Shown here: positions 2,541 to 17,301 of the stretch, piece by piece | Layout of the letters: each line of letters opens with the position of its first letter | Numbering within the stretch: the stretch's first letter is position 1 | From: JBFJWU01 sp041623475 [NCBI: bacterium] | GTDB lineage: Bacteria; J088 | Length of the DNA: 22,873 bases | Direction of reading: 5' to 3' | Assembly: GCA_041623475.1 (NCBI GenBank) | Contig: JBFJWU010000006.1 | Location: 1-22,873 of the forward strand | Position numbers and translations under genes: made by a program | The notes under the pieces: generated by a model | Databases searched by the model: none | What the model saw: the letters and a program-made list of their open reading frames with translations, nothing else | What the model was told of the DNA's origin: nothing

Positions 2541-2554
2541 TTGACCATTGTCAA
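2541..2554. promoter_or_regulatory. FNR/Anr/Dnr-family operator between hemN and the CopD-like gene
   Basis: The 14-base sequence TTGACCATTGTCAA is a perfect TTGAC-N4-GTCAA palindrome and fits the family consensus TTGA-N6-TCAA. It lies 56 bases before the chosen hemN start. A weak -10 stands at the class II distance on each side (TACCAT at 2577-2582 and TACGAT at 2518-2513), so one dimer could serve both directions. In Pseudomonas, hemN is known to be controlled by Anr and Dnr. Which regulator acts here is unknown, and no regulator gene is in the window. Confidence 0.75.
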
Positions 2555-2609: not shown

Positions 2610-4028
2610 GTGCCCACAATTGCGACTGCGAACAACGCCAATAGACCCGGACATCCGGGTACCACGCCGCGACCGGGTGATTTGGATAAGTACATCCGCC
2701 GTGGCCCACGCTACACCAGTTACCCAACGGCCGTCGAGTTCTCGCCCGCAGTTGACAGTGTTGCATTTGAATCTGAACTGGCACGGATTGAATCCGGGAA
2801 CCAGCAGCATTCGTTGTACATTCACATTCCTTTTTGCAGGTCGCTGTGTACCTATTGCGGCTGCAACATGGTTGTCCGTCGTGACACCAGCCAGGCCAGT
2901 CGGTACCTGGACTGTCTGGATCGTGAATTGGCAATGATCGCTGGTTCTGTTGCTGGCAAAATTCGGCTGCAGGGATTGCACTGGGGCGGCGGGACACCGA
3001 ACTTCCTGTCTGACAGCCAGATCTGCCGTCTTTGGACATCGATCCACAGTCGATTTGAACTGAATCCGGACGGCGAACGCTCGATTGAACTGGATCCTCG
3101 GTGCACTACACCGGCGCAATTGGAATTGCTAAAAGAACTGGGCTTTCAACGCATCAGTTTTGGTGTCCAGGACTTTTCACCCAATGTCCAGCAGGCGATC
3201 AACAGACAGCAGTCCGTGGACCTGCTGACATCGCTGACCGCACATGCGCGCCGAATCGGGATCAAGGGCATCAATTTCGACTTGATCCTTGGACTGCCCC
3301 ACCAGACGCCGGATTCATTTGCGACAACGTTGCGCCACGTGATCCGGCTGCGTCCGGACCGTATCGCAGCCTACAATTTTGCCTGGCTTCCAACACTGAA
3401 AAAGCACCACCAGAAGATCCAGCCGGAATGGCTGCCAGCCGCCGACGTCCGCAGCCAGATCTATGAGCGGACCCATCAGGTTTTGTGCAATGCCGGCTAC
3501 CGCCATATTGGCCTGGACCACTTCGCCCTGGCCGACGACCCGCTGGTCCGGGCCCAGGACGATGGGCGATTGTTCCGTAATTTCCAGGGTTATACGACGG
3601 GCCACGACCAACTGTTGCTTGGCGCGGGAATGTCCGCAATCTCGCAGCTTGAAGGGTGCTTTGCCCAGAACAGGAAAACCATCAGAGCCTATATGGATGC
3701 TATTGAATCCGGCAAATTCGCAACCGACCGTGGCACCCTGCTCACAGATGATGACCATATCCGGTCAGCGGCAATCCAGCAGATCATGTGTAACTTCAAA
3801 CTGGATCTCGATGCCCTGTCGATCCAACTGAACCGCACTATGGACGGGGTGTTCGCTGATGAGTTGGAGCGTTTGCAGGTGTACCAGCGCGACGGCCTGA
3901 TCCGATTTGGCTCCAACGGTTTCTCGGTAACCGATATCGGTCGTTACTACGTACGGACAATCGCGATGGAATTCGATGCCTATCGGCGAGGGAACGGCGA
4001 AACAGGAACCTTCTCGCAAACGGCTTGA
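2610..4028 (+). CDS. hemN: Oxygen-independent coproporphyrinogen III oxidase (radical SAM)
   Basis: HemN converts coproporphyrinogen III to protoporphyrinogen IX without oxygen in the cytoplasm, using S-adenosylmethionine and a [4Fe-4S] cluster. GPRYTSYPTAVEFS near residues 32-45 is the characteristic HemN N-terminus. The cluster motif FCRSLCTYCGC gives Cys76, 80, 83 and 85, the CX3CX2CXC pattern that separates true HemN from HemW-like proteins. GGGTPNFL, SFGVQDF and DLILGLPHQT follow in the usual order. The frame is open upstream, but GTG at 2610 has GGAG six bases before it and gives 472 residues, close to the E. coli length of about 457. An FNR-type palindrome upstream suggests anaerobic induction together with the neighbouring nap cluster. 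The gene converges on nrfD-like with a 29-base gap. Confidence 0.95.
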   Translation: MPTIATANNANRPGHPGTTPRPGDLDKYIRRGPRYTSYPTAVEFSPAVDSVAFESELARIESGNQQHSLYIHIPFCRSLCTYCGCNMVVRRDTSQASRYLDCLDRELAMIAGSVAGKIRLQGLHWGGGTPNFLSDSQICRLWTSIHSRFELNPDGERSIELDPRCTTPAQLELLKELGFQRISFGVQDFSPNVQQAINRQQSVDLLTSLTAHARRIGIKGINFDLILGLPHQTPDSFATTLRHVIRLRPDRIAAYNFAWLPTLKKHHQKIQPEWLPAADVRSQIYERTHQVLCNAGYRHIGLDHFALADDPLVRAQDDGRLFRNFQGYTTGHDQLLLGAGMSAISQLEGCFAQNRKTIRAYMDAIESGKFATDRGTLLTDDDHIRSAAIQQIMCNFKLDLDALSIQLNRTMDGVFADELERLQVYQRDGLIRFGSNGFSVTDIGRYYVRTIAMEFDAYRRGNGETGTFSQTA

Positions 4029-4057
4029 ACGTACAGAAATCGAAACTGTTGCCGTTT

Positions 4058-5269
4058 TCAGTGTTCCCCTGTAGGTCCTTTACCGATCTGGCCGGTTTCA
4101 ATCGCGACCGCTACTTTTGCCAGTACTGTAAAGACGAACAGCCCCAGCGCCAGGATTCCGGCGGAGACCAGCAGCTCAATCGCAGTGGGCGCGTACTCGA
4201 CAATCTCACCCAATGGCGACGGAATGAACCCGGGCACGACCAGCCCCATGCCCTTTTCAATCCAGATCGCAAAAAATAACACCGTGGCAGCGGGCACCAG
4301 TACCTTGACCTTTCGCCGTAACGGATGAATCGTCAGGATTGCAGTCATGGCAACATTCAACCCGATCGCGGTCCATATCCATCCGGTCAGAGCGTTGTGC
4401 CCATGGAGCCCGAAAAACAGGTATCGAGCGCTCAGGCTGTGATGCGTCGGCCAATAGAACTCTTTGAACAGTTCAGACGCCAGCATCACCAGATTAATCT
4501 GGGCCGCCACCGTTACAATCAGCCCTAACTTGTGCAGTGTTTCGTCCTTGATTTTGTACTCGGTAAACCGCCGAATCATTACCAGCGAAACAATAATAAA
4601 TGATGGCCCAGCCGCAAATGCAGATGCCAGAAATCGGGGCCCCAGGAGCGATGTATTCCAGTAGGGACGAGCCGTCAGCCCCGCATACAGGAACGCGGTG
4701 ACCAGATGGATTCCAAAGGCCCAGAATACGCTCAGGAAAACGAACGGGACGTACAGATTACGCCGGGGCTGACGTCCGTGGTAGTGCTGGTACAGAACGT
4801 ACATCGGAATCAGCAGGTTCAGCGCCAGGTACCCGTTCAGGACAAGCACATCCCACGTGAGCATCGACTGGGGAAAGTTGAAATAGCCAATGCCCGGCAT
4901 CATGTGCCACAGCCGGGTCGGACCACCCATGTCCGCTGTGACGAACGCCAGGCACATTACCAGGGCCGAGACCGCAACGCCTTCGCCGACCAGCACCGCC
5001 CGGGAAAAATCGACATCCTGAAGCACGTACGCGGGCAGGACAATCATTACGGCTGCTGCGGCCAAACCAACCAGAAACGTAAAGTTTGAAATATAAAGGC
5101 CCCAGCTGACGTGGTCCGTCATGCCGGTAACAACCAGCCCCTCGCGAAATTGTACGCTGTAGGCGTAACCACCGACGATCATAACCAATGACAACGCGCC
5201 CATCCACAGGTGGTAAGCCCGTCCACCTGTTGTCGCCACGACAATCCCGTCTTTGAAGAAAGAAAACAC
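4058..5269 (-). CDS. NrfD/PsrC-family quinol-oxidising membrane subunit (DsrP-like)
   Basis: The product has 403 residues and about ten predicted membrane helices, roughly at residues 20-40, 54-80, 92-112, 140-165, 173-195, 210-235, 248-270, 285-310, 322-345 and 365-390. The length and layout fit the NrfD/PsrC superfamily, which exchanges electrons between quinols and a periplasmic ferredoxin subunit and carries no cofactor itself. The internal stretch FNFPQSMLTWDVLVLNGY and the following WNTSLLGPRFLASAFAAGP resemble, from memory, the DsrP branch rather than short NrfD. It starts 11 bases after the ferredoxin stop and closes the nap operon. I infer that it replaces NapC or NapGH as the quinol dehydrogenase. 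The family call is firm; the nitrate role rests on context. Confidence 0.88.
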   Translation of the reverse strand: MFSFFKDGIVVATTGGRAYHLWMGALSLVMIVGGYAYSVQFREGLVVTGMTDHVSWGLYISNFTFLVGLAAAAVMIVLPAYVLQDVDFSRAVLVGEGVAVSALVMCLAFVTADMGGPTRLWHMMPGIGYFNFPQSMLTWDVLVLNGYLALNLLIPMYVLYQHYHGRQPRRNLYVPFVFLSVFWAFGIHLVTAFLYAGLTARPYWNTSLLGPRFLASAFAAGPSFIIVSLVMIRRFTEYKIKDETLHKLGLIVTVAAQINLVMLASELFKEFYWPTHHSLSARYLFFGLHGHNALTGWIWTAIGLNVAMTAILTIHPLRRKVKVLVPAATVLFFAIWIEKGMGLVVPGFIPSPLGEIVEYAPTAIELLVSAGILALGLFVFTVLAKVAVAIETGQIGKGPTGEH

Positions 5270-5280
5270 TTAACTCGCCC

Positions 5281-6351
5281 CTAGTCCATGAAGTACCAGA
5301 ACTTGGGATCGGTCCCCAGGTCCTCTTTCAATCGAAATACCTTCTTGTTTGCCAGAACCCAGCGAATTTCACTGTTGGGATCCAGCAGATTCCCAAAAAT
5401 CCGCGCGCCGGTCGGGCACGCTTCGGCACAGGCCGGCTGCTGACCTTCCCGTGTTCGCTGGATACAGAATGTGCATTTCTCCATAACGCCCTTTTTGCGC
5501 GGCCGGTTTCCCAGGTAATGCTGACGAGGATTGACTTGTTCTGCGGGAACAACCGGCTCTGCCCAGTTGAATCTCCGGGCCCAGTATGGACATGCAGCCT
5601 CGCAGTAGCGGCAACCGATACACCAGTCGTAGTCGATCACTGTGATACCATCGGGCTCTTTCCAGGTTGCACCAACCGGACAAACAGTGACGCACGGCGG
5701 ATTCTCACACTGAAAACATTGCGTCCCAAGATAAAAATGACCTTCCGCCGGCACATCGTGGAAATAATCGGCTTTCCCGTCTTCCAGGTTCATCCGACCA
5801 TTCTCCATCTCGAATATCCGAATGTATTGCATGTTCGAACGTCGGTCCTGATTGTTTTCCAGCACACAGGCCTTGACACAATCCCGGTAGCCTCGGCAAG
5901 TGGAGATATTGAATGCGTAACCATACAGGACATTTGGGCGCGCCTGTGTACCGGCAATATGGACGTCGCGGCCAGTTTTCATTTCGGCCAGGCGTTCCAG
6001 GCGGCTGATGGTCTGTTGGCGCTCAGCGGGGGTCATCAACCGGAAGTTCCCCTTGAAGTACTCCTCCCACTCCAGTGCCTTGCGTTCCTTGGCGGCCTCT
6101 GCTTCCAGCGGATTTGCAGCGGCACGTACGACCCCCGCTGTGGCCACGGCGCCGCCGAACATCGCAGCCAGACTGGCACGCCGGCTCATTTTCTTGTTCC
6201 CAAGGCCGCCAGATCGCTCTATTTCCGGGTCGCATTCGCATCCGCTGCCACAGGACCCTGCTCGTTCGGTGCGCTCGATTCGTGGATCCGCCCCGGAGGT
6301 CAGCAATCGCATGAATCCAGCGAAATCGATCGGTTTTTGCTCGTTGCTCAT
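5281..6351 (-). CDS. NrfC/DsrO-like 4Fe-4S ferredoxin with internal Tat signal
   Basis: The product has 356 residues. It is expected to carry electrons from the NrfD-like protein to periplasmic cytochromes. Three complete cluster motifs are seen: CFQCENPPCVTVCP, CIGCRYCEAACP and the split CTFC...CAEACP. The first motif, around residues 152-162, reads CRGYRDCVKAC with Tyr155 where the second Cys normally stands, so that site may hold a [3Fe-4S] cluster or none. SRRASLAAM at residues 56-64, followed by a hydrophobic stretch, looks like a Tat signal. It is preceded by an unusual leader containing SCGSGCEC (Cys34, 38, 40). The ATG at 6351 is one base after the upstream stop, which supports it. 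An internal ATG at 6189 would give a normal short Tat leader and is the main alternative. Confidence 0.85.
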   Translation of the reverse strand: MSNEQKPIDFAGFMRLLTSGADPRIERTERAGSCGSGCECDPEIERSGGLGNKKMSRRASLAAMFGGAVATAGVVRAAANPLEAEAAKERKALEWEEYFKGNFRLMTPAERQQTISRLERLAEMKTGRDVHIAGTQARPNVLYGYAFNISTCRGYRDCVKACVLENNQDRRSNMQYIRIFEMENGRMNLEDGKADYFHDVPAEGHFYLGTQCFQCENPPCVTVCPVGATWKEPDGITVIDYDWCIGCRYCEAACPYWARRFNWAEPVVPAEQVNPRQHYLGNRPRKKGVMEKCTFCIQRTREGQQPACAEACPTGARIFGNLLDPNSEIRWVLANKKVFRLKEDLGTDPKFWYFMD

Positions 6352-6352
6352 T

Positions 6353-6949
6353 TCAGTGTCCAGCCTTTTTTGCACGATCGGGCGCGATCGTCGGTTGTGC
6401 AACGGGCATCCTTGTTTCCAATGCAGGGGAATGTGGATTATGGCAGCCTGCGCAGGTTTTAATGACCCGGGGTTCCGCCCAACCGGTTAACCGTTTTCCG
6501 TGCGCACCGCCAAGCCAGTCCTGTCGCTGATCACTGTGGCACTTACCGCACAATTCGTTCGCAAACTCGAATCCCAGTTTCGATTCGCCAAGCAATTCCA
6601 GGGATCCAGGATCCTGTGCCACATGGCAATCCCTGCAGGTCATTCCAGGCGCGTGGACCAGCGAGACCTGCCAATGGGCCGCCCGCTGTTCGGGCAAAGT
6701 CCTGGACGTGCGCCCCGTCATTCCCGGACCGTGACAGTTTCGGCACGCTCTCGCATCGGGATTGTGCCCGGCCACCCAGGATTCAAATGTCGCATCTGGA
6801 ACCGGAACGGCATCCAGTGTCGCAACGGTTCTCGACGCGTCGTCGGGACTGACCAGCAGCGCCGGACCGATTCCGGTCCCGTTGTGTTCTGACTCGAAGC
6901 AGGAAACCAACAACAGGGCAGCAAGTATGCCGGTCACTATCCGGATCAT
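6353..6949 (-). CDS. Tetrahaem c-type cytochrome lipoprotein
   Basis: The product has 198 residues. A lipoprotein signal (LLLVSC, acylated Cys17) would anchor it in a membrane facing the periplasm. Four CXXCH haem sites are visible: CRNCH at residue 69, CRDCH at 105, CGKCH at 134 and CAGCH at 166. Extra conserved-looking His residues (for example His92, His99, His150, His173) could supply distal ligands. The ATG overlaps the napB stop as ATGA, and the ferredoxin gene starts one base after its own stop, so all three are translationally linked. By position it should carry electrons between the ferredoxin and NapB. It is comparable in role to NapM of Desulfovibrio or DsrJ, but I cannot assign it to either family. 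The reading frame continues upstream inside napB, but that extension is antifamily in composition and is rejected. Confidence 0.88.
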   Translation of the reverse strand: MIRIVTGILAALLLVSCFESEHNGTGIGPALLVSPDDASRTVATLDAVPVPDATFESWVAGHNPDARACRNCHGPGMTGRTSRTLPEQRAAHWQVSLVHAPGMTCRDCHVAQDPGSLELLGESKLGFEFANELCGKCHSDQRQDWLGGAHGKRLTGWAEPRVIKTCAGCHNPHSPALETRMPVAQPTIAPDRAKKAGH

Positions 6950-7632
6950 GGGGAACCATCCTGTGGTGGAAACGGTGCCGCCGGTTCCTGGGGGACGTGG
7001 CATTGTCTGCAATTTACCCGTTCTGGATGTGTTGTCCGGATTTCTGCGACGGCCGCAGGCCCCGTGTGGCACGCCTGGCAGTTTTCGCGCAACTGTAATC
7101 CGTGCGGCATCACCAGCGGACTGGTCGGCAACGCACGGCGTCCGATTTCGCGTACTGCGGGCTCCTGCCAGTTGATTCCGCGGAAATTTGTCGCCGAAAC
7201 CTGGGGGACGTGGCATTGTCGGCAGTTTGCAAATGTCGGGTGTGGCGTAATTGGCGCATAGGCGCGTAAAGTCGGCGCGTAGCCGCCGTTCTCGTGACAA
7301 ACCATACAATCATCAGCGACCAGCCCATCATCATCAATCGGATGCGGAATCGTTGGCGGTGCACCGGCATAAGCCCGATTTGCGCTGAGATTTCGAAGCG
7401 TTCGCCGCCTCGCCCCCGGTATCGCAGGTGCCAGTGTCATCGCAACTGGATAGGCCTGGTACATCGCACCTTCGGCCTGGTTGACCGGACCGTCAGTGCT
7501 GGCCGCCATCGGTGCCTGGCCGGTAAATGCCGAATCCGGACCGCCGCGAACGGTCTCGCCGACCAGCCACACGACGACCGGGACCGTCGCAAAGAAGGTC
7601 GCGATCAGGACTATACGTGTCCCCGGGTTCAA
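6946..7632 (-). CDS. napB: NapB-like periplasmic nitrate reductase cytochrome c subunit, four haem sites
   Basis: The product has 228 residues and passes electrons to NapA in the periplasm. The NapB signature is present: PPTIPHPI near residue 92, then CMVCH at 109 and CRQCHVPQ at 137. Two further haem sites follow, CQACH at 185 and CRQCHVPQ at 208. Canonical NapB has only two haems, so this one has an added C-terminal two-haem module that ends in the same CRQCHVPQ string. The N-terminal hydrophobic stretch (residues 7-24) is a signal peptide or anchor. The start is a TTG at 7632, 14 bases after the napA stop, with AGGG seven bases before it; no ATG or GTG lies suitably placed. The 3' end overlaps the tetrahaem lipoprotein gene by three bases. 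Confidence 0.85.
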   Translation of the reverse strand: MNPGTRIVLIATFFATVPVVVWLVGETVRGGPDSAFTGQAPMAASTDGPVNQAEGAMYQAYPVAMTLAPAIPGARRRTLRNLSANRAYAGAPPTIPHPIDDDGLVADDCMVCHENGGYAPTLRAYAPITPHPTFANCRQCHVPQVSATNFRGINWQEPAVREIGRRALPTSPLVMPHGLQLRENCQACHTGPAAVAEIRTTHPERVNCRQCHVPQEPAAPFPPQDGSP

Positions 7633-7646
7633 CGCCGCGCCCTGCC

Positions 7647-9959
7647 TCAGGCCCGCTCAACGCGGACGGCGCATTTCTTGTAATCCGGCTGCTTGGAAAT
7701 CGGGCAGTATGCGTCGAGTGTCAGCTCATTGACCAGCAGGCTTTCGTCAAAGAACGGGACAAACACCTGTCCGCGCGTTGGATTACCCCGACCGTTAATA
7801 CTTGCGCGGATGCGCAGAACACCACGCCGACTGGTCAACACAACGCGATCGCCGTCAGTGATTCCCAATGACGCGGCATCTTCTGGATGAATCTCCACGT
7901 AGGCCGACGGCACCGCGCGATGCAGTACCGGGATCCGCCGCGTCATGGAACCTGAATGCCAGTGTTCGATAACTCGACCCGTGTTCAGCCAGAACGGATA
8001 CTCATCGTCCGGGACTTCCGGGGGTGCCTCATATGGACGCGCCCAGATCCAGGCCCTGTGGTCCGGCTTGCCGTAAAAGTCGAACGGTTTAGTCGGATCG
8101 CATGCCGGATCATATGTACTGTTAAATCGCCACCGTGTTTCCTTGCCTTCAACGAAGGGCCACTGAACCCCGGCACGAGACTTCAAGACGTCGTAAGGTG
8201 CCATCTCGTGCTTCGGTCCCGCGTGGAAACGACGGTATTCGTTCCAGATCTCTTCGATATGTGTCGCTGGTTGGTATGGGAATTCCTTTTCGAACCCCAT
8301 ACGACGCGCGACCTCGATCATTTGCCAGGTATCGCTCATTGCGTCGCCTGGGGGATCTACCAACTTTTCGAAATGTTGCGTACGCCGTTCCGAGTTACCG
8401 TACATACCTTCGCGTTCGATCCACATGGCGGCCGGCAGGATGACATCAGCCACCTCGGTTGTCGGTGTCGGGTAGATGTCCGACACAACGACGAAACGTC
8501 CTTCCTTTTCCAGCCCCCCACGATAGCGGTTCAGCTTGGGCATCGTGACCATTGGATTGGTCACCTGAATCCAGACGAACCGGATGTCGCCTCGGTCAAG
8601 ACCGCGAAACATGTCGACAGTATGGTTGGACGGCTTGTCGGGAATTCGCTCGACCGGAACACCCCAGATTTCTGCAGCAAATTTGCGGTGATCCGGGTTC
8701 ATTACAACGCCTTTGGGCAGCTTGTGTGTAAGCGTCCCGACCTCACGCACTGTTCCGCATGCACTCGGCTGGCCTGTCAGCGAAAACGGACCATTCCCGG
8801 GCTGTGAGATCTTGCCGGTCAGCAAGTGGATGTTGTAAACCAGATTGTTGATCCAGGTGCCACGTGTGTGCTGATTCATCCCCATGCACCAAAAGGAGAC
8901 GACTTTTTTCCGGGGATTGCCGAATAGCCTTGCCAGGTACCGGATGTGCCCTGCGGACACCCCGCTGACCTCCTCTACTTTCTCCGGGGTATAGTCCGCC
9001 AGGAAGGCCCTGTACTGATCCACGTCCATCGGCTGCGCTTCGTCGCCGAATTTGAATTCGTCCTCGAGGCCGTAACCAATATTTGTCTTGCCTGACTTGA
9101 ACGAGACATGGTTTCGAACAAATTCCTGGTTGATCCAGCCGTTCTCGAACAACTGCTGGCAAATACCGTTGGCAATCGCCAGGTCTGTTTGCGGATGAAA
9201 CAGGAACGAGTGATCTGCAGCGTGGCTGGTCCGCGTCGTGCGGGTTGCCAGGTCAATAATGACGGTTTCCGGATGTGTGCGTTTGCGTTCCAGAAGTCTC
9301 GAAAACAGCACTGGATGCATTTCCGCCATATTGTTGCCCCATAGGACAAACACATCTGCGTGTTCGATATCCTCGTAGCAACCCATGGGTTCGTCCATCC
9401 CGAAGCTGGTCAGGAACCCGGTAACCGCGCTTGCCATGCACAGGCGAGCGTTGGCCTCCAGGTTGTTCGTGCCAATACAGCCCTTGGTAAATTTACTGGC
9501 CACATACCCATCCGGAATCGTCCACTGGCCCGATCCATAGATAGCAACTGCATCTTTGCCGTGCTGTTCGATTGTTTCCCGCATCTTCGATGCGACCAGA
9601 TCCAGCGCTTCGTTGATGGGAACGTCAACCATCTTGCCGTTGCGGCGCACCTTCGCCTTTTTCAGGCGATCGCGACCGTACATCGACATCACCGAATGGT
9701 ACCCCTTGACGCAGGCCAATCCCTTGTTGGCGGCACCTTTAGGATCGCCCTTTACGCCGACGGCACGCCCACCCTTGATTGCGATCTGCAACCCACAACC
9801 GACGCCACAAAACCGGCACGGGGCCTTGTGCCACTTGGCTCCGTCCAGTCCGGACGCGTCGGCAATGTCAGGAAACACAACACCCGGCACCAACTGAGCC
9901 GCTGCCGCCGCAGCAGCGGCGGCAGCAGATCGTTGAACCAGTTCACGGCGTTGAATCAT
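7647..9959 (-). CDS. napA: Periplasmic nitrate reductase catalytic subunit NapA
   Basis: NapA reduces nitrate to nitrite in the periplasm with a bis-MGD molybdenum centre and one [4Fe-4S] cluster. The 770-residue product has a Tat-type start (QRRELVQ, then a run of ten alanines). Cluster ligands are Cys48, 51, 55 and 83 (CRFCGVGC and LACVKGY), and the NapA signature [10 protein letters not shown] gives Cys174 as the likely Mo ligand. The C-terminal molybdopterin-binding part contains [18 protein letters not shown]. It is shorter than E. coli NapA (about 828), nearer to the compact types. The ATG at 9959 has GAGGAGGA five bases before it and overlaps the end of napD by 17 bases. Neighbouring napD and napB make nitrate the likely substrate rather than the assimilatory Nas role. 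Confidence 0.95.
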
Positions 9960-10194
9960 GATGCTCCTCCTCGTTCCAGGCGAATGCCAACGAAAGGCAC
10001 TGGATCCCGTCAACCGACTCCAGATAGCCCCGAACATCCTTGTCCTGGTGGCGATCAACTGTATCGGTCACGATGACGAACAGGTTGTGCTCAGCGGAAG
10101 GGAAACAGCTGACAGACGGATGCCTGTCCAGTTCGGCCTGGACCTGACAGGTTTTCTGTTGGTCAATGTGCGCAACGTAACTTGCGATTGTCAT
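9943..10194 (-). CDS. napD: NapD, Tat-signal chaperone for NapA
   Basis: The product has 83 residues. It starts [10 protein letters not shown], like the first beta strand of NapD, and has the ferredoxin-like beta-alpha-beta layout: an N-terminal strand, a helix with [12 protein letters not shown], a strand [10 protein letters not shown], then a helix and [14 protein letters not shown]. NapD binds the NapA twin-arginine signal in the cytoplasm and holds back export until the cofactor is inserted. The acidic tail NEEEHHDS is encoded by the same bases that form the strong napA ribosome binding site, and the two genes overlap by 17 bases. It is the second gene of the operon, 75 bases after the DUF2892 gene. 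Confidence 0.85.
9965..9972 (-). promoter_or_regulatory. Strong ribosome binding site of napA inside napD
   Basis: On the - strand this reads GAGGAGGA, five bases before the ATG at 9959. It decides the napA start over the longer open frame and lies within the last codons of napD, which couples translation of the chaperone and its client. Confidence 0.75.
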
Positions 10195-10269
10195 GGGTGC
10201 CCGAACCCTTTCAGCAGCACTTGACTGCCCGTTTGTTGTTTTGACGGCGCCTGGGCCAAACCGGTCTTT

Positions 10270-10485
10270 CTAGTGACCGCTCTCGCGCCAGGCAAGCGTG
10301 TCAGTGCCTTTGATCAAGTACAGTGGACAGATCCCGCTGAGCGCAGTCAGCATCAGGATCGTTGAGATACCCAACACAACCAGATCTGCACCGCCCGGGA
10401 CAACCCCGGCCGCAGTCAGGCTGAATCCCATGATCGAAATCGTTCCACGAATTGCCCGGTCGGGGCCGCCCACGTTGGTTTTCAT
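10270..10485 (-). CDS. Small DUF2892-type (YgaP-like) membrane protein
   Basis: The product has 71 residues. The N-terminus KTNVGGPDRAIRG and the end SGICPLYLIKGTDT are the marks of the DUF2892 family, as in the membrane part of YgaP. Two hydrophobic hairpin segments lie between them (residues about 16-32 and 34-52). The family has no settled function; it is often seen near sulfur or redox genes. It is the first gene of the nap operon, which places it where napE sits in other clusters, but it is not NapE in sequence. AGGAG stands nine bases before the ATG at 10485. The gap to napD is 75 bases, with no promoter that I can recognise in it. Confidence 0.8.
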   Translation of the reverse strand: MKTNVGGPDRAIRGTISIMGFSLTAAGVVPGGADLVVLGISTILMLTALSGICPLYLIKGTDTLAWRESGH

Positions 10486-10541
10486 CGTTCATTGCTCCTG
10501 CAAGATCTGCGGATCAGCTCCGCTTTTCAAGTATGCCGAAC

Positions 10542-10547
10542 ATAATC
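10542..10547 (-). promoter_or_regulatory. Candidate -10 element of the nap operon
   Basis: On the - strand this reads GATTAT, four of six bases of TATAAT. Its downstream edge is 34.5 bases from the centre of the palindrome at 10570-10583, the class II activator distance. Transcription would start near 10535 and leave a leader of about 50 bases before the DUF2892 gene. Confidence 0.4.
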
Positions 10548-10569
10548 TGCGATCGATCCCGGACTTTCC

Positions 10570-10583
10570 TTGACCTGTGTCAA
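10570..10583. promoter_or_regulatory. FNR/Anr/Dnr-family operator, nap side
   Basis: TTGACCTGTGTCAA is a perfect TTGAC-N4-GTCAA palindrome with the same half-sites as the hemN operator. It lies about 85 bases before the first gene of the nap operon and has a fitting -10 (10547-10542) in that direction. No matching -10 is found at the same distance in the porin direction, so it is assigned to nap. Confidence 0.75.
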
Positions 10584-10633
10584 TAATTGAGACACACAGC
10601 CCTTCCAGACCCGATTTTCCGGTTTCTACAATC

Positions 10634-10647
10634 TTGACGGTGGTCAA
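10634..10647. promoter_or_regulatory. FNR/Anr/Dnr-family operator, porin side
   Basis: TTGACGGTGGTCAA is a third TTGAC-N4-GTCAA palindrome. Its centre is 64 bases from that of the nap-side site and it stands 73 bases before the porin start. The -10 at the class II distance toward the porin is poor: CACGAT or GATATG near 10669-10677 match three of six bases. Its direction of action is therefore less certain. Confidence 0.7.
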
Positions 10648-10720
10648 TGAGATTCCTCTGATTTCTGTCACGATATGTCCCAGTTTCGGGAATCGTGATC
10701 AAAATGGGAAGGATCAGGCA

Positions 10721-11929
10721 GTGAAAAAACTGGTATCAAGAGCCGCGTTGGCTGCTGGAATAATTTCGATTTCGGCGACTGTCGCAGTCGCCGCTGACCT
10801 GGAGCACTCGGCCCAATACCGGCCCCGGTTTGAACTCCAACGTGGCACCGTCTCGACGCCGAACACCGTCTTTGCGGCCAGCCACAGGGCTCGCCTGACA
10901 CTCGGGTATGGCTCCGAAAGCTGGAAAATCTCTGTGGCACCCCAGCATGTACTGGTCTGGGGGTCCTCGGGATCAACGTTGTCTGGCCTGTCAGGGGACC
11001 TTGATTTCCACACCGCATTTGCGCAATACGCGTTTACCGACACCACATCGATCCGCATCGGCCGCCAGGAAATCGCAATCGCCGACCAGCGATTGATTGG
11101 CAGCGTCAACTGGACTCAGCAGGGCCGCAGTTTTGATGCGGTATCGGTAAATCACGCCAGCGTTGACAAAACCTACCAAAGCACCTCTTTTGCGGCCATC
11201 GTCCACGAAGGTGGTTCTATTGATGAGTTACTGGCCGGCGTACACTTCACGGAACGGCTCGACTCGTTATCAATCTCGGGAATGGCGATACTGGAACAAT
11301 CGCGGCGGCGGGTCAATGGTGACGAAGACTTTGTCCGAGTTACACCGGGCCTGCTGCTCGACTATTCAGGGGATGCGCTTCAGGCAGGTGTTTCCGCGTA
11401 TGGCCAATTTGGAACCGTTGCACCGGGAGGCACGACCAGTCAGTCGATCGCCGCAGCGCTGGTTGCCGCAAACGTGTTGGTCAAGTCCGAATCCGCAGGA
11501 CATTTTGGCTGGGGGCTGGATTTCCTGACAGGATCAAAAGCCTCGGGTAGTGGCCCTGACGCATTTGACACCCTGTACGCAACCAACCACAAGTTTTACG
11601 GCTCTATGGACTATTTCCTCAATCTGCCCGTACATACTGGCGGGCTGGGATTGATTGATAGCCACATGACGTGGTCGTCAAACGTCCTGGATAACCTGGA
11701 TCTTGGCGTAAAGGTCCACCAGTTCCTGGCAGCCAATGAAACCGCCGCGGGCAACCGGAACTTCGCCACCGAATTCGACCATTTTGCGAAATGGAAGTTC
11801 AAGCCCGCCACACTGGTTGGAGGCTACTCATTTGCATTTCACGGCGACGCATTGAAAGACATTGGGAGAGTCGCAGCCAATGACGATATCGGCCATTGGC
11901 TGTGGCTGATGCTGGATGTACAGTTGTGA
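10721..11929 (+). CDS. Alginate-export-family outer-membrane porin
   Basis: The product has 402 residues with a signal peptide of about 24 residues (KKLVSRAALAAGIISIS, cleaved near AVA-AD). The mature part is rich in alternating strands and begins HSAQYRPRFEL. GRQEIAIADQRLIG at residues 114-127, followed by VNWTQQGRSFDA, is typical of the alginate export (AlgE-like) porin family. It should form an outer-membrane beta barrel. The frame is open upstream, but GTG at 10721 has AAGGA seven bases before it and gives a proper signal peptide. The gene is transcribed away from the nap operon and has its own FNR-type palindrome, so I infer a role in anion passage, perhaps nitrate or nitrite, under anoxia. 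Alginate is unlikely, as no alginate genes are near. Confidence 0.82.
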   Translation: MKKLVSRAALAAGIISISATVAVAADLEHSAQYRPRFELQRGTVSTPNTVFAASHRARLTLGYGSESWKISVAPQHVLVWGSSGSTLSGLSGDLDFHTAFAQYAFTDTTSIRIGRQEIAIADQRLIGSVNWTQQGRSFDAVSVNHASVDKTYQSTSFAAIVHEGGSIDELLAGVHFTERLDSLSISGMAILEQSRRRVNGDEDFVRVTPGLLLDYSGDALQAGVSAYGQFGTVAPGGTTSQSIAAALVAANVLVKSESAGHFGWGLDFLTGSKASGSGPDAFDTLYATNHKFYGSMDYFLNLPVHTGGLGLIDSHMTWSSNVLDNLDLGVKVHQFLAANETAAGNRNFATEFDHFAKWKFKPATLVGGYSFAFHGDALKDIGRVAANDDIGHWLWLMLDVQL

Positions 11930-14108: not shown

Positions 14109-16214
14109 CTAACCGCCGTCCAGCCCCGTCCGTGCCTCGCAGAGAGACAGATAATATTGGGCGGCCGTGTCAGACGGATCAGTCTTCAACACGAACCGGA
14201 ATTCAACCAGCGATGCTGCAAAATCCTGGTCCAGGTAGGCCCGCACGGCGTCCTCGAACCGATCACGCGTCTGACGTTTACGTTCTGCGACCTCTGGAAC
14301 GTCGCCGTGAAACACGTCAAAGATGTCAACGCGTTCCTGTTTGCCCTTCAGCTCGACGCGCCCCAGGAACCGAATATCATCAAAGGCGTTGCCCGCCACG
14401 TCATCCAGCACACTGGACGTCGCAATGATATCCGCACCGAACAGCCTGGTCAGCCGTTCGACGCGGGCAGCGGTATTCACCGAATCCGAAATAACTGTCC
14501 CCTCCAGCCGCTCCTCGACACCAACCGTTCCCAGCATCATTTCGCCCACGTGCATACCTACGCCGATACTGATCGGCTGGTATCCGCTGTTGGCACGGTA
14601 CCCATTGTAAATCCGGATCTGTTCGATCATACCCACCGCCGAGCGCAGCGCATCTGCGGGATCCTCGGGGAACAACGCCATCACCTCGTCACCTATGTAC
14701 TTGTCAATAAATCCCCGGTGGCGGGCGATCATTGGCGTTACCATCCCCAGGTAACCATTGATGAAACGGAAATTCTCTTCGGGTGTCATGGTTTCCGACA
14801 ATGTCGTAAAGTTGCGAATATCGGCAAACAGGATCGTCATTCGTGCTTTGGTATGGTCGCCCAGTTTGATCTGTTCGATGCTTTCCCGACCCAGGGTTTC
14901 CAGGAATTCCCGGGGTACAAACCGGGCAAATGACCGGGTCATTTCCTGCTGCGCTTCCAGCGCTTCCCGTTCGGCGCGGAGCAGGCTGAGCTGGGCATGG
15001 TTTTTCTCTCGACGCAGGACATTGATTCGATCGGCCAGCGCCAGGGACAAAAGGACGACTTCGACCACGGTGCCAATTTGTAATGAATACCGGGTGACCG
15101 GCGATGCGGGAAAAACGCCCAGTTTGCCGGCAATGTGCAGCCACTGGCCGACAATCAATGACACCCACGCCACCAGAAAGAAACGTGCCGGCAGGAACCC
15201 CTTGCGCAGGCAGATTATGCCGGCCACCAGGATGGTAACCCCGGACAAGGATCCCACCAGGCTCAGGATGCCGACACCGCTGTAATAATCGTACATCCCG
15301 TAAATGGTCAACACAAAAATCGCCACGGACAAAACCCTGAAAAACCTGTGCAACCGCGGCGTATAGATGTGTGTCTGCAGGAACGATGGCGTAAACAACA
15401 ACAAAAAGAAATTGGCGCCGCCACCGGTCAGGATAATGACCGGGTCGGTCCATCCGGGGGACTCGCGCCACAGATAAAGGTTGGCGAATCCGTTCTGGGC
15501 AAACTGGAAAAGGACGATCAGTCCGATATAGCAGACGTACAAAAGGTAGTTCCGGTCCCTGACCGTCACATAGACGAACAGGTTGTACAGGACCATCACC
15601 AGCATCATTCCGTAATATGCCCCGAACAGCATCTGAGATTCGGTCTGGGCATCAAAAAACGCGTCTTCGTCCCAGACACTCAAGGGCAGGCTGATATTGC
15701 TGACACTGACCACGCGAATATAGACCATTACTGATCCGCCGGGCTCGATTTCCACCGGGAAAACCGGCGTACGACTCTGGACTGTACGTTTGGAAACCGG
15801 AACTTTGTCCCCGGCCAACATGTGCTGGATAGCCCCGCCGTTACGAACGACATAGGCATCGATCCGGTCAAGGACCGCTTCTTCGAGGTTCACGATCAGT
15901 TCCAGGCGGTCATCGCTGCTGTTACGCAAGCTAAACCGAATCCAGAAAGCGTCGCTGGAATAGGAAAAATTGGGCCGCAGGGTATCGTTGGCCTGGAATT
16001 CGGCCTCGAACTCGCCAGCCAGGACCTGGTCAATGGTCAATTGACGTGTTGCGTCCCGCATGATGTCAACGTGCTGGTCCAGGGTGACACGGTCTTTGCC
16101 AGCGTCTACCGGAACAATGTCAGCCTGTGCTGGACCGGCCAGGCAGATCAACAGCAGGGCCAGCGGCATCAGTGCATTGAACAACCGGCGGACTATGGTT
16201 GGGGCGGCCATCAT
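14109..16214 (-). CDS. Membrane adenylate cyclase with 7TMR-DISM sensor
   Basis: The product has 701 residues. The layout is a signal peptide (about 1-32), an extracytoplasmic 7TMR-DISMED2-type sensor (about 45-185), seven membrane helices (about 195-400), a coiled linker rich in Glu and Arg (about 405-440) and a class III cyclase domain. FADIRNFT (Asp465) and DKYIGDEV (Asp509) bind metal; NTAARVE holds Asn580 and Arg584. LKGK near 622-625 with Thr573 gives the Lys/Thr pair of adenylate-type cyclases. A short tail (about 650-701) looks TPR-like. It should make cAMP in response to a periplasmic ligand, probably a carbohydrate-like molecule. The start is ATG 16214; the frame is open upstream, but only this start gives a signal peptide, and no strong ribosome binding site is seen. 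Confidence 0.9.
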   Translation of the reverse strand: MMAAPTIVRRLFNALMPLALLLICLAGPAQADIVPVDAGKDRVTLDQHVDIMRDATRQLTIDQVLAGEFEAEFQANDTLRPNFSYSSDAFWIRFSLRNSSDDRLELIVNLEEAVLDRIDAYVVRNGGAIQHMLAGDKVPVSKRTVQSRTPVFPVEIEPGGSVMVYIRVVSVSNISLPLSVWDEDAFFDAQTESQMLFGAYYGMMLVMVLYNLFVYVTVRDRNYLLYVCYIGLIVLFQFAQNGFANLYLWRESPGWTDPVIILTGGGANFFLLLFTPSFLQTHIYTPRLHRFFRVLSVAIFVLTIYGMYDYYSGVGILSLVGSLSGVTILVAGIICLRKGFLPARFFLVAWVSLIVGQWLHIAGKLGVFPASPVTRYSLQIGTVVEVVLLSLALADRINVLRREKNHAQLSLLRAEREALEAQQEMTRSFARFVPREFLETLGRESIEQIKLGDHTKARMTILFADIRNFTTLSETMTPEENFRFINGYLGMVTPMIARHRGFIDKYIGDEVMALFPEDPADALRSAVGMIEQIRIYNGYRANSGYQPISIGVGMHVGEMMLGTVGVEERLEGTVISDSVNTAARVERLTRLFGADIIATSSVLDDVAGNAFDDIRFLGRVELKGKQERVDIFDVFHGDVPEVAERKRQTRDRFEDAVRAYLDQDFAASLVEFRFVLKTDPSDTAAQYYLSLCEARTGLDGG

Positions 16215-16269
16215 TACCGCTAATCTACCGGAACTGTCCCGGGCACGCCTCTGGAACAGGGGCAAACCG

Positions 16270-16290
16270 AATACCGTACCAGCCGGTATT
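16270..16290 (-). terminator. Possible hairpin terminator after pirin
   Basis: AATACCG and CGGTATT form a perfect seven-base stem around a seven-base loop, four bases past the pirin stop. No proper T run follows on the - strand (CGGTTTG), so it would be a weak terminator or a stabilising hairpin between pirin and the cyclase gene. Confidence 0.3.
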
Positions 16291-16293
16291 ATT

Positions 16294-17301
16294 TCAGGGC
16301 GATTCCTCGCGTCCGTCACCATGGATGGCAAACCGGTCCTGGTCGCGCGGATGGACAGGTCCATGGTCCGGCCATGGCCAGCCACCGAACTGGGTGCGCT
16401 GGTACTCGACAATCGTTTCCTGGATTTCCTCGCGCGTATTCATGACAAACGGGCCGTGCTGGAATACCGGTTCATTGATCGGACGGCCCTGCAGCATGAC
16501 CAGTTCGCAGTCACCCGGACCCGCTGTTAACGGCACATCCCTGGCCGAATCCAGGTCGACGGCGTTGTAATTGCCGATCACCTGTCCATCGACCGTCAGT
16601 TGGTCTCCTTCGTAGAAATATAGCGTTCGGTTCAGGCCCGGGGCCGCCGCCGGCAACGTCCAGCCAGCACCGGCCGGCAGGCGGATCATCCAGACTGCCA
16701 CGTGATTCGCCGGGTCCGCCGCCCATGAATCCGGCGGTGGCGACGGCGGCTTCGCGTCGTCCAGTTCGCCGGCAATCACGGTGACCGTTACGGGTGTATC
16801 ACCGGCACCCGGAAATTCGAGCCGGGGAACCTGCTCGGACCAGAACATTGAAAAGTATGGTTCGCACAATTTGCCCTTCCGGGGCAGGTTCAACCAGATC
16901 TGGAAGATTTCCAGTGTATTGGGTCCGTTCGGGTCGCGCAGCGGAAACATCTCGGAATGAACCACCCCCTGGCCCGCGGTCATCCACTGGACATCGCCCT
17001 GTCCAAACCTGGCCGTCGCACCCATCGAATCCGAGTGATCCACAAAACCCTGACGGGCCAGGGTGATCGTTTCGAAACCGCGATGCGGGTGCTGTGGAAA
17101 GCCCGGCACTTTGGTGCCGTGATACATACTCCAGCCATCTTTGCGGGAAAAATCATTGCCCAGGACACGCCCCGTCAGCGAATCTTCGGGAGCCATCGCC
17201 TCATTTCCGGCCGGATACCGGTCCAGGTGATGCGCGCAGAACAGAAAGGGGTCCCGCGTCTCCCAGGGAAACCCCATCTGCCGGACGGCCAGGACGGTCA
17301 T
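16294..17301 (-). CDS. Pirin family protein
   Basis: The product has 335 residues with two cupin domains. The N-terminal cupin carries the metal-binding set His71, His73, His115 and Glu117 in HPHRGFETI and TAGQGVVHSEMF, spaced as in human pirin. The C-terminal part (about 190-310) is the usual second cupin without a clear metal site. Bacterial pirins are cytoplasmic iron proteins; some act as quercetinases, others bind metabolic enzymes, and sequence alone does not decide. AGGGA stands eight bases before the ATG. The gene follows the unrecognised lipoprotein by 37 bases on the same strand and may share its transcript. Confidence 0.93.
   Translation of the reverse strand: MTVLAVRQMGFPWETRDPFLFCAHHLDRYPAGNEAMAPEDSLTGRVLGNDFSRKDGWSMYHGTKVPGFPQHPHRGFETITLARQGFVDHSDSMGATARFGQGDVQWMTAGQGVVHSEMFPLRDPNGPNTLEIFQIWLNLPRKGKLCEPYFSMFWSEQVPRLEFPGAGDTPVTVTVIAGELDDAKPPSPPPDSWAADPANHVAVWMIRLPAGAGWTLPAAAPGLNRTLYFYEGDQLTVDGQVIGNYNAVDLDSARDVPLTAGPGDCELVMLQGRPINEPVFQHGPFVMNTREEIQETIVEYQRTQFGGWPWPDHGPVHPRDQDRFAIHGDGREESP

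What the first reader, a model, noticed from the sequence alone, without database searches (positions are those of the whole stretch)
4058..10485. Nitrate reductase operon wired through an NrfCD/DsrOP-type module instead of NapC or NapGH
The operon reads DUF2892, napD, napA, four-haem napB, four-haem lipoprotein, Tat-type ferredoxin, NrfD-like protein. Genes overlap or nearly touch from napD to the end. Known Nap systems take electrons from NapC or NapGH. Here the only quinol-reactive gene is the NrfD-like protein, and the implied path is quinol to NrfD-like, ferredoxin, tetrahaem lipoprotein, NapB, NapA. The ferredoxin and membrane subunit look closer to the DsrO/DsrP branch, with the cytochrome in the place of DsrJ, which suggests a module shared between sulfur and nitrogen respiration. 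I do not know of this exact set having been characterised biochemically.
Basis: partly seen in the sequence, partly recalled or inferred. Interest (0 to 1): 0.8.

Follow-up and report, generated by a model that had tools for sequence, protein, structure and literature searches.

The report
Nitrate reductase with DsrOP-type quinol module
A bacterial nitrate-breathing operon, found in many flavobacteria and in several other phyla, seems to draw its electrons through a membrane module related to one from sulfate-reducing bacteria instead of the usual nitrate-reductase partners.

Summary
The minus-strand operon (10194 to 4058) encodes NapD, NapA, a four-haem NapB, a tetrahaem lipoprotein, a Tat-type ferredoxin and an NrfD-family membrane protein. 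The last two belong to the DsrO/DsrP branch, not to E. coli NrfCD. The architecture is conserved: 70 of the 80 loci kept from a genome scan with the NapB profile have all six genes in order. In 199 genomes of one flavobacterial family, NapA and DsrP occur in the same 37, close together. The specific NapH and NapC models reached their cut-offs in 0 of 42 and 0 of 49 carriers. NapA, ferredoxin and membrane protein each form one clade, which fits inheritance as a unit. NapB is a tandem duplication of the dihaem unit; the two cytochromes keep eight further histidines, enough to ligate all eight haems. The quinone-site residues reported for DsrP are kept. The cassette without nap was described in 2026 in cable bacteria with unknown function. 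My ten searches of an open-licence library did not find the nap-linked form; a 2026 review lists four other nap operon kinds. Most likely it is a quinol:nitrate reductase with a DsrOP-type quinol dehydrogenase. Electron flow and proton pumping are untested; the window's own genome is not held.

The parts
9943..10194 (-). napD: chaperone of NapA
   Evidence: PF03927 22.2 bits, under its cut-off of 28; position and 17-base overlap with napA; own two-sequence NapD profile finds it upstream of napA in most relatives
7647..9959 (-). napA: molybdenum nitrate reductase, 770 aa, CxxCxxxC motif at 48, C83, RLCMASA with candidate Mo-ligand Cys174
   Evidence: TIGR01706 944.4 bits over cut-off 930.55; motifs (role of the Cys recalled); clade 100/99 with the other operons of this kind, sister to canonical NapA
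6946..7632 (-). napB4: four-haem NapB, a tandem duplication of the dihaem unit, perhaps held by an uncleaved N-terminal helix
   Evidence: PF03892 38.8 bits; four CXXCH; internal repeat; four further invariant His 97, 131, 177, 202; helix 3-29 at high pLDDT in an otherwise poor model; the anchor is inferred
6353..6949 (-). tetrahaem lipoprotein, lipobox LVSC with Cys17
   Evidence: four CXXCH; Cys17, four CXXCH and His 92, 99, 150, 173 invariant in 45 nap-linked sequences; a crude lipobox pattern alone matched 92 of 120 nap-linked and other cassette members
5281..6351 (-). DsrO-like Tat ferredoxin, 356 aa
   Evidence: best NCBIfam model DsrO, 180.4 bits, under its cut-off of 200; RR motif; tree
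4058..5269 (-). DsrP-like NrfD-family membrane subunit, proposed quinol dehydrogenase
   Evidence: NF045798 DsrP 399 bits over cut-off 350; quinone-site residues Y59, D113, S135, D140 kept; tree
10570..10583 (.). FNR/FixK-type palindrome TTGAC-N4-GTCAA upstream of the operon
   Evidence: 3 exact TTGAYNNNNRTCAA in the window, 0.12 expected, 0 of 100 shuffles reach 3; name of the motif recalled
10634..10647 (.). second FNR/FixK-type palindrome in the same region
10270..10485 (-). DUF2892/YgaP-like membrane protein, upstream of napD; not part of the conserved module
   Evidence: PF11127 42 bits; hits in 2 of 80 related loci, far away
10721..11929 (+). divergent alginate-export-type outer-membrane porin, perhaps associated
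   Evidence: PF13372 33.5 bits for 10577-11929; homologues near the nap operon in 23 of 76 loci; start inferred

Best explanation
This is a periplasmic nitrate reductase operon of an architecture outside the four listed kinds: napD-napA-napB(4 haem)-tetrahaem lipoprotein-dsrO-like-dsrP-like. Its quinol dehydrogenase is a DsrOP-type module instead of NapC or NapGH. Proposed path: quinol is oxidised at the P-side site of the DsrP-like subunit. Electrons pass through the Fe-S clusters of the Tat-exported DsrO-like protein to the lipid-anchored tetrahaem protein, then to the duplicated four-haem NapB, then to the [4Fe-4S] cluster and Mo centre of NapA, which reduces nitrate to nitrite. Shown: gene content and order, conservation, one clade per tested gene (NapA, ferredoxin, membrane protein), no NapC or NapH at the cut-offs of the specific models in the relatives tested, conserved candidate haem ligands and quinone-site residues. 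Inferred: complex formation, direction and order of electron transfer, nitrate as substrate, regulation by an FNR-type factor.
For: Six-gene order in 70 of 80 loci from a scan with the NapB4 profile; 8 of the other 10 are cut by contig ends, 1 (L073) lacks a detected napD and is cut downstream, 1 (L081) lacks napA and napD. A search not based on NapB4: 37 of 199 genomes of one family have NapA (E<=1e-150), the same 37 have DsrP (E<=1e-40), on one contig 4.2-5.3 kb apart in 37 of 37; NapB4 beside NapA in 37 of 37, the rest of the cassette in 9 of 9 fetched with long flanks. NapH over cut-off 0 of 42; NapC/NirT TIGR02161 over cut-off 0 of 49, best 31.9 against 310.6 bits, while E. coli passes. 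Looser family PF03264 over cut-off in 25 of 42, of which 23 carry an NrfH over NrfH's cut-off; 17 of 42 have none over cut-off. Trees: nap-linked DsrP 99*, ferredoxin 98*, NapA 100/99*. DsrP quinone-site residues 4 of 4 kept in 21 of 21 rows (positions from PMC8076601). Four haem motifs in 80 of 80 NapB4 and 79 of 79 tetrahaem proteins of L003-L082, and four further invariant His in each.
Against: No biochemistry. The window's own genome is not held, so napC or napGH elsewhere in it cannot be excluded. The lipoprotein could face the outer membrane. L081 has the last four genes but no napA or napD nearby. Structure models of both cytochromes were poor (mean pLDDT 63.7 and 53.1), so haem spacing is unchecked. 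The ferredoxin and NapD fall under their curated cut-offs. In G037 and G042 further NapC/NirT-like frames exist besides NrfH. NapH was searched in only 2 Gemmatimonadota carriers, the group nearest the window in the trees. The cassette also exists without nap, once even inside the flavobacterial set (G570, L239).
Confidence: 0.85

Rival explanations
1. The tetrahaem-DsrO-DsrP cassette is a general quinol-to-periplasm wire that feeds several periplasmic acceptors; NapA is only one client, and in these genomes it also serves others such as NrfA.
For: The same cassette occurs without napB4 in Desulfobacterota and Gemmatimonadota, alone or beside octahaem, 11-haem or other molybdoenzyme genes. PMC13047784 section 11 proposes such a role in cable bacteria. 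Thermosulfurimonas and Dissulfuribacter have a Hao/NrfD/ferredoxin/cytochrome locus near napMADGH (PMC5276818 passages).
Against: The nap-linked members are a separate clade in both module trees, overlap or nearly touch the nap genes in the window, and no DsrP at E<=1e-40 occurs in the 162 of 199 family genomes without NapA.
Confidence: 0.2
2. NapB4 and NapA take electrons from another quinol:cytochrome c route (NrfH, alternative complex III, cytochrome bc) and the DsrOP cassette serves an unrelated acceptor.
For: NrfH over cut-off in 23 of 42 carriers; a second NrfD-family protein of 469-470 aa is present in two Bacteroidota carriers, by size an ACIII subunit but not checked with a family model.
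Against: 17 of 42 carriers have no NapC/NirT-type protein over cut-off; strict co-occurrence 37 of 37; one clade each for NapA, ferredoxin and membrane protein.
Confidence: 0.1
3. The NapA-like enzyme reduces another oxyanion rather than nitrate.
For: It is 770 aa, shorter than the 830-position canonical NapA models, and has a different partner set.
Against: It passes the NapA equivalog cut-offs, keeps the FeS and Mo-Cys motifs and is sister to canonical NapA; anaerobic hemN with an FNR-type box lies nearby.
Confidence: 0.04

Closest known systems
Periplasmic nitrate reductases napEDABC, napDAGHB, napCMADGH, napAGHBFLD (the four operon kinds listed in PMC13223375, passages seen)
   Same: NapD, NapA and a NapB-type cytochrome; NapA sister to the canonical NapA rows used
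   Different: No NapC, NapG, NapH or NapM in the operon; NapB has four haems; the quinol module is DsrOP-type
dsrOhPh-tetrahaem locus of cable bacteria, Desulfobulbales and Beta-/Gammaproteobacteria (PMC13047784, section 11 read)
   Same: Tetrahaem cytochrome with His-His haems plus DsrO and DsrP homologues, separate from dsrMKJ; DsrP homologue near but outside canonical DsrP
   Different: There it stands apart with unknown function; here it is part of a nap operon with NapB4 and NapA. Its published sequences were not on hand, so no direct comparison was made
DsrMKJOP of sulfate reducers
   Same: DsrP-like subunit passes the DsrP cut-off; order cytochrome-O-P matches J-O-P
   Different: No DsrM, DsrK, DsrJ in the operon; the tetrahaem protein is not convincingly similar to DsrJ; separate clade
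napMADGH plus Hao/NrfD/ferredoxin/cytochrome cluster of Thermosulfurimonas dismutans and Dissulfuribacter thermophilus (PMC5276818, passages)
   Same: NrfD-family protein, ferredoxin and multihaem cytochromes in one cluster with nap
   Different: NapGH present, NapB absent; the NrfD set was tentatively assigned to nitrite reduction or sulfur metabolism. Sequences not compared
NrfABCD
   Same: Ferredoxin plus NrfD-family quinol dehydrogenase feeding a periplasmic N-oxyanion reductase through a multihaem cytochrome
   Different: Both subunits are far from NrfC/NrfD

Membership tests
Periplasmic nitrate reductase (Nap) | NapA catalytic subunit by curated model | tested here: met
   TIGR01706 944.4 over 930.55; NF010055 970.5 over 904
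Periplasmic nitrate reductase (Nap) | NapD chaperone | tested here: inconclusive
   PF03927 22.2 bits, cut-off 28; right place
Periplasmic nitrate reductase (Nap) | dihaem NapB | tested here: not met
   NapB family hit over cut-off but four haems; duplication of the dihaem unit
Periplasmic nitrate reductase (Nap) | NapC or NapGH as quinol dehydrogenase | tested here: not met
   none in the operon; 0 of 42 NapH and 0 of 49 NapC over cut-off in carriers; own genome not held
Periplasmic nitrate reductase (Nap) | nitrate reductase activity | not testable with these tools
   needs an assay
DsrMKJOP | DsrP by curated model | tested here: met
   NF045798 399 over 350; but the model also catches members outside dsr loci
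DsrMKJOP | DsrO by curated model | tested here: not met
   NF045797 180.4 under 200
DsrMKJOP | adjacent dsrM, dsrK, dsrJ | tested here: not met
   not among the operon's genes; a genuine locus, L142, has all five over cut-off
NrfABCD | NrfC/NrfD by model and tree | tested here: not met
   TIGR03149 118.8 under 377.6; trees
dsrOhPh-tetrahaem locus | DsrO homologue, DsrP homologue and bis-His tetrahaem cytochrome outside dsrMKJ | tested here: met
   bis-His judged from invariant histidines only; definition from PMC13047784
dsrOhPh-tetrahaem locus | sequence clade of the published DsrPh proteins | not tested
   published sequences not on hand; the cassettes without nap found here stand in for them

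The most novel reading that the evidence does not exclude
This is an energy-conserving periplasmic nitrate reductase: the DsrP-type subunit moves protons across the membrane while oxidising quinol, so that nitrate reduction by this Nap is electrogenic, unlike NapC-type Nap. 13 of 16 proposed ion-path residues of DsrP, the Lys gate included, are kept in at least 19 of 21 nap-linked rows, and the free energy from quinol to nitrate would allow it (recalled).
Probability: 0.3. Interest if true: 0.82.

Novelty: new variant of a known kind. Interest (0 to 1): 0.63.

Why it matters
It adds an operon kind to the four that a 2026 review lists for Nap, found in 37 of 199 genomes of one flavobacterial family and in several other phyla. 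It ties the tetrahaem-DsrO-DsrP cassette, reported in 2026 with unknown function, to a terminal enzyme. RefSeq labels a nitrate-operon protein 'sulfate reduction electron transfer complex DsrMKJOP subunit DsrP' (Flammeovirga), which can mislead metabolic reconstructions. It also makes testable whether a periplasmic nitrate reductase can conserve energy. Whether it is the only nitrate reductase of its carriers was not tested.

Tried and rejected
NrfCD origin: rejected by model scores and trees. DsrJ homology of the tetrahaem protein: not supported (hmmsearch E 0.03-0.36 against four DsrJ; hhalign probability 3.6). DUF2892 as a part: rejected. Haem spacing from predicted structures: both models too poor to use, so no fold search was run. 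Sigma-70 promoter scan of 3900-10800: nothing found. Taxonomy of the window: not settled; its NapA, ferredoxin and DsrP group with Gemmatimonadota rows on a branch of their own (supports 92/90, 90, 92), and no whole genome is held. PDB search with the DsrP pair finds three chains, two named NrfD and one ACIII subunit C. A haloarchaeal DsrO-type hit on a plasmid is a different molybdoenzyme operon.

Dropped or limited rows: one search kept the best 80 of 131 relatives. For the cytochrome alignments I dropped frames with under four CXXCH: 0 NapB4 and 3 tetrahaem frames (L121, L124, L132, all without nap), out of 102 and 131 considered; near-identical rows and odd lengths were dropped too. In the trees I used a chosen subset of loci; one search left out one short row (L182), its outgroup branches are long, and the outgroup proteins other than E. 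coli and Shewanella NrfCD were not named by a family model. The NapA searches used E<=1e-150 and could miss remote NapA. NapH was tested in 42 carriers, which include 7 of the 37 flavobacterial genomes and 2 Gemmatimonadota. In one search, 76 of 80 loci had both ends of the operon and were used. The Desulfovibrio DsrP itself was not on hand; its numbering was carried over through L096, and the Lys gate sits one position off there. The DUF2892 profile rests on one sequence.
Full report
What is in the window. On the minus strand from 10194 down to 4058 lie napD, napA, a NapB-family cytochrome with four CXXCH motifs, a lipoprotein with four CXXCH motifs, a ferredoxin with a twin-arginine motif and an NrfD-family membrane protein, with gaps of -17, 14, -4, 1 and 11 bases. 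NapA passes the curated NapA models; the membrane protein passes the DsrP model (399 over 350) and the ferredoxin's best model is DsrO (180.4, under 200), with NrfC far below its cut-off. A DUF2892 gene precedes napD by 75 bases but is not conserved with the unit.

Conservation. Flammeovirga kamogawensis (Bacteroidota) has the same six genes in order (identities 67% NapA, 58% ferredoxin, 61% membrane protein, 39% and 35% for the cytochromes). One scan of genome contigs with the two-sequence NapB4 profile found 131 relatives, of which the best 80 were kept: mostly Bacteroidota, above all Flavobacteriaceae and kin, also two Gemmatimonadota, a Calditrichia, a Nitrospina and a Desulfosudis bin (by record titles). 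Of these 80, 70 carry all six genes in order; 8 are cut by contig ends; L073 lacks a detected napD and is cut downstream; L081 has the last four genes but neither napA nor napD in 18.7 kb.

A search not based on NapB4 gives the same answer. Of 199 genomes of one flavobacterial family, 37 have NapA at E<=1e-150 and exactly the same 37 have a DsrP-family protein at E<=1e-40, on the same contig and 4.2-5.3 kb away in 37 of 37. One of the 37, G570, has a second DsrP, in a cassette without nap (L239). NapB4 lies beside NapA in 37 of 37, and the tetrahaem-ferredoxin-DsrP part follows in the 9 of 9 fetched with long flanks. Across the phylum NapA is rare at that threshold: 3 of 247, one being the centre genome and the other two also among the 37. 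In Gemmatimonadota 24 of 200 genomes have a DsrP-family protein at E<=1e-40; of those whose surroundings I read, 11 genomes show the nap-linked form (one of them, L232, cut before napA) and 7 the cassette without nap.

Other quinol dehydrogenases. In 42 carriers NapH reached its cut-off in none (41 have weaker matches; among the 14 control genomes 12 have matches and 1 passes). NapC/NirT by TIGR02161 reached its cut-off in 0 of 49 carriers, 37 of them the family sample, best 31.9 against 310.6 bits, while E. coli passed as a control (8 of the 49 are also among the 42). The looser Pfam family PF03264 is over cut-off in 25 of 42: 23 of these hold an NrfH over the NrfH cut-off and the other 2 hold only frames of 502-677 aa; 17 of 42 have none over cut-off. 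G037 and G042 hold further such frames besides NrfH. Among 12 Gemmatimonadota and Desulfobacterota carriers 9 have a PF03264 match over cut-off; the four short ones lie beside a 487-530 aa protein with 4-5 haem motifs, an NrfHA-like arrangement judged by size and order only. The NapB-family matches listed for the 42 lie in frames of 226-247 aa, the size of NapB4. The window's own genome is not held, so it could not be searched.

The cytochromes. In L003-L082, 80 of 80 NapB4 and 79 of 79 tetrahaem proteins have exactly four CXXCH motifs. Over 62 aligned NapB4 sequences four further histidines (97, 131, 177, 202) are invariant, and the two halves align with each other better than 1000 shuffles even with haem motifs masked (score 49, best shuffle 46; 104 against 61 unmasked), so NapB4 looks like a duplicated dihaem NapB. 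In 63 tetrahaem proteins with and without nap, histidines 92, 99, 150 and 173 are invariant; in 45 nap-linked ones the lipobox cysteine 17 is too. Three tetrahaem-type frames with three motifs, all without nap, had been left out before alignment. Eight extra histidines fit bis-His ligation of all eight haems; that is an inference. Predicted models of both proteins were poor and were not used further.

The membrane protein. Published positions for the quinone site and ion path of Desulfovibrio DsrP (PMC8076601, passages seen) map onto the dsr-group DsrP rows with 16-19 of 20 matches. All four quinone-site residues are kept in 21 of 21 nap-linked rows (window Y59, D113, S135, D140), and 13 of 16 ion-path residues, including the Lys gate (window K339, one position off in the carried-over numbering), are kept in at least 19 of 21; R152, K162 and T194 are changed in most rows (the window keeps T206 at T194's place). 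Quinol oxidation by this subunit is thus well supported by sequence; proton movement is only possible.

Trees. For the membrane protein (82 rows) the nap-linked rows are one side of a branch (99), the rows of the dsr group another (97), and the cassettes without nap lie between and are not one group (nap plus cassette 91); E. coli NrfD and other NrfD-family proteins of these genomes are far off, on long branches. For the ferredoxin (79 rows) nap, dsr and nap-plus-cassette have 98, 98 and 100. For NapA (32 rows) the operon's proteins form a clade (100/99) sister to six canonical NapA (100/99). The rows were a chosen subset; the first two trees are quick searches. One reference dsr locus, L142, was verified gene by gene. 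The window groups with Gemmatimonadota rows in all three trees (supports 92, 90, 92/90), on a branch of its own.

The cassette outside nap. In the Desulfobacterota-type phylum of G039, 75 of 118 genomes have a DsrP-family protein at E<=1e-60. Of 25 lower-scoring places whose surroundings I fetched, 22 are a tetrahaem-ferredoxin-DsrP cassette without NapB4, 1 is nap-linked (L131) and 2 are dsr-like (L140, L141). The cassette stands alone, or beside an octahaem cytochrome plus a tetrahaem cytochrome and a different NapA-like enzyme (L116, L118, L119), an octahaem cytochrome (L128), or an 11-haem protein with partial similarity to ExtM (L130). A 2026 paper on cable bacteria described such a dsrOhPh-tetrahaem locus, all haems His-His, with unknown function and possible quinol-to-periplasm transfer (PMC13047784, section 11 read). 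The nap-linked operon adds a terminal enzyme tied to the cassette.

Regulation and surroundings. Three exact TTGAY-N4-RTCAA palindromes occur in the window against 0.12 expected; two lie between the operon and a divergent porin gene, one near the start of hemN (upstream if hemN starts at 2610, which is not settled). Homologues of that porin lie near the operon in 23 of 76 loci, and many loci have genes upstream that look like molybdenum-cofactor genes (read by eye, no family model). This fits anaerobic nitrate respiration.

Prior art. Ten literature searches, limited to the open-licence library, turned up no description of napDAB with a DsrOP-type module; I opened nine of the listed papers, mostly passages, and saw the rest as listings only. 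A 2026 review lists four nap operon kinds, none with an NrfD-family subunit (PMC13223375, passages). The NrfD-family survey of 2021 has no NapA in its text (PMC8076601). A 2023 Dsr study notes DsrO homologues of unclear function beside NrfD-domain genes (PMC10504309, passages). The nearest reports are the napMADGH plus NrfD cluster of Thermosulfurimonas and Dissulfuribacter (PMC5276818, PMC4911364, passages) and Caldithrix abyssi, whose nap lacks NapB and NapC but has NapGH and a Rieske/cytochrome b (PMC5317091, passages). Most subscription papers are not held, so an earlier mention cannot be excluded.

Verdict. It is a new variant of a known kind: Nap with a DsrOP-type quinol dehydrogenase and a duplicated NapB.

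Noticed in passing
window 2541-2554, 10570-10583, 10634-10647: Three exact FNR/FixK-type palindromes TTGAC-N4-GTCAA, near the start of hemN and between the nap operon and a divergent porin; 0.12 expected.
   Followed up: partly
window 10577-11929: Alginate-export-type porin divergent from the operon; homologues near the nap operon in 23 of 76 loci, perhaps a nitrate/nitrite porin.
   Followed up: partly
L116 2243-10272; L118; L119: Operon octahaem cytochrome - tetrahaem - DsrO-like - DsrP-like - HEAT-repeat protein - tetrahaem - NapA-like enzyme (L119 shows no HEAT gene and is cut). A possible nitrate-to-ammonium operon with the same quinol module.
   Followed up: partly
L081: NapB4, tetrahaem, ferredoxin and DsrP-like genes present but no napA or napD in 18.7 kb; cofactor-like genes lie directly upstream, read by eye.
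   Followed up: partly
L243 8785-11811: Persicobacter NapA-like enzyme (39% identity) followed by a 223-aa four-haem protein; no DsrO- or DsrP-like hit in the stretch.
   Followed up: no
L001 12397-13614: RefSeq names this nitrate-operon protein 'sulfate reduction electron transfer complex DsrMKJOP subunit DsrP', a misleading label.
   Followed up: yes
L256 4316-4621: 102-aa NapC/NirT-like frame with two haem motifs just downstream of dsrP in G553, perhaps a shortened nrfH.
   Followed up: no
L130 2761-5169: 11-haem protein with partial similarity to ExtM (214.8 bits, cut-off 800) beside the cassette.
   Followed up: no
window 14109-16412: 7TMR-DISM receptor joined to a guanylate/adenylate cyclase domain.
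   Followed up: no
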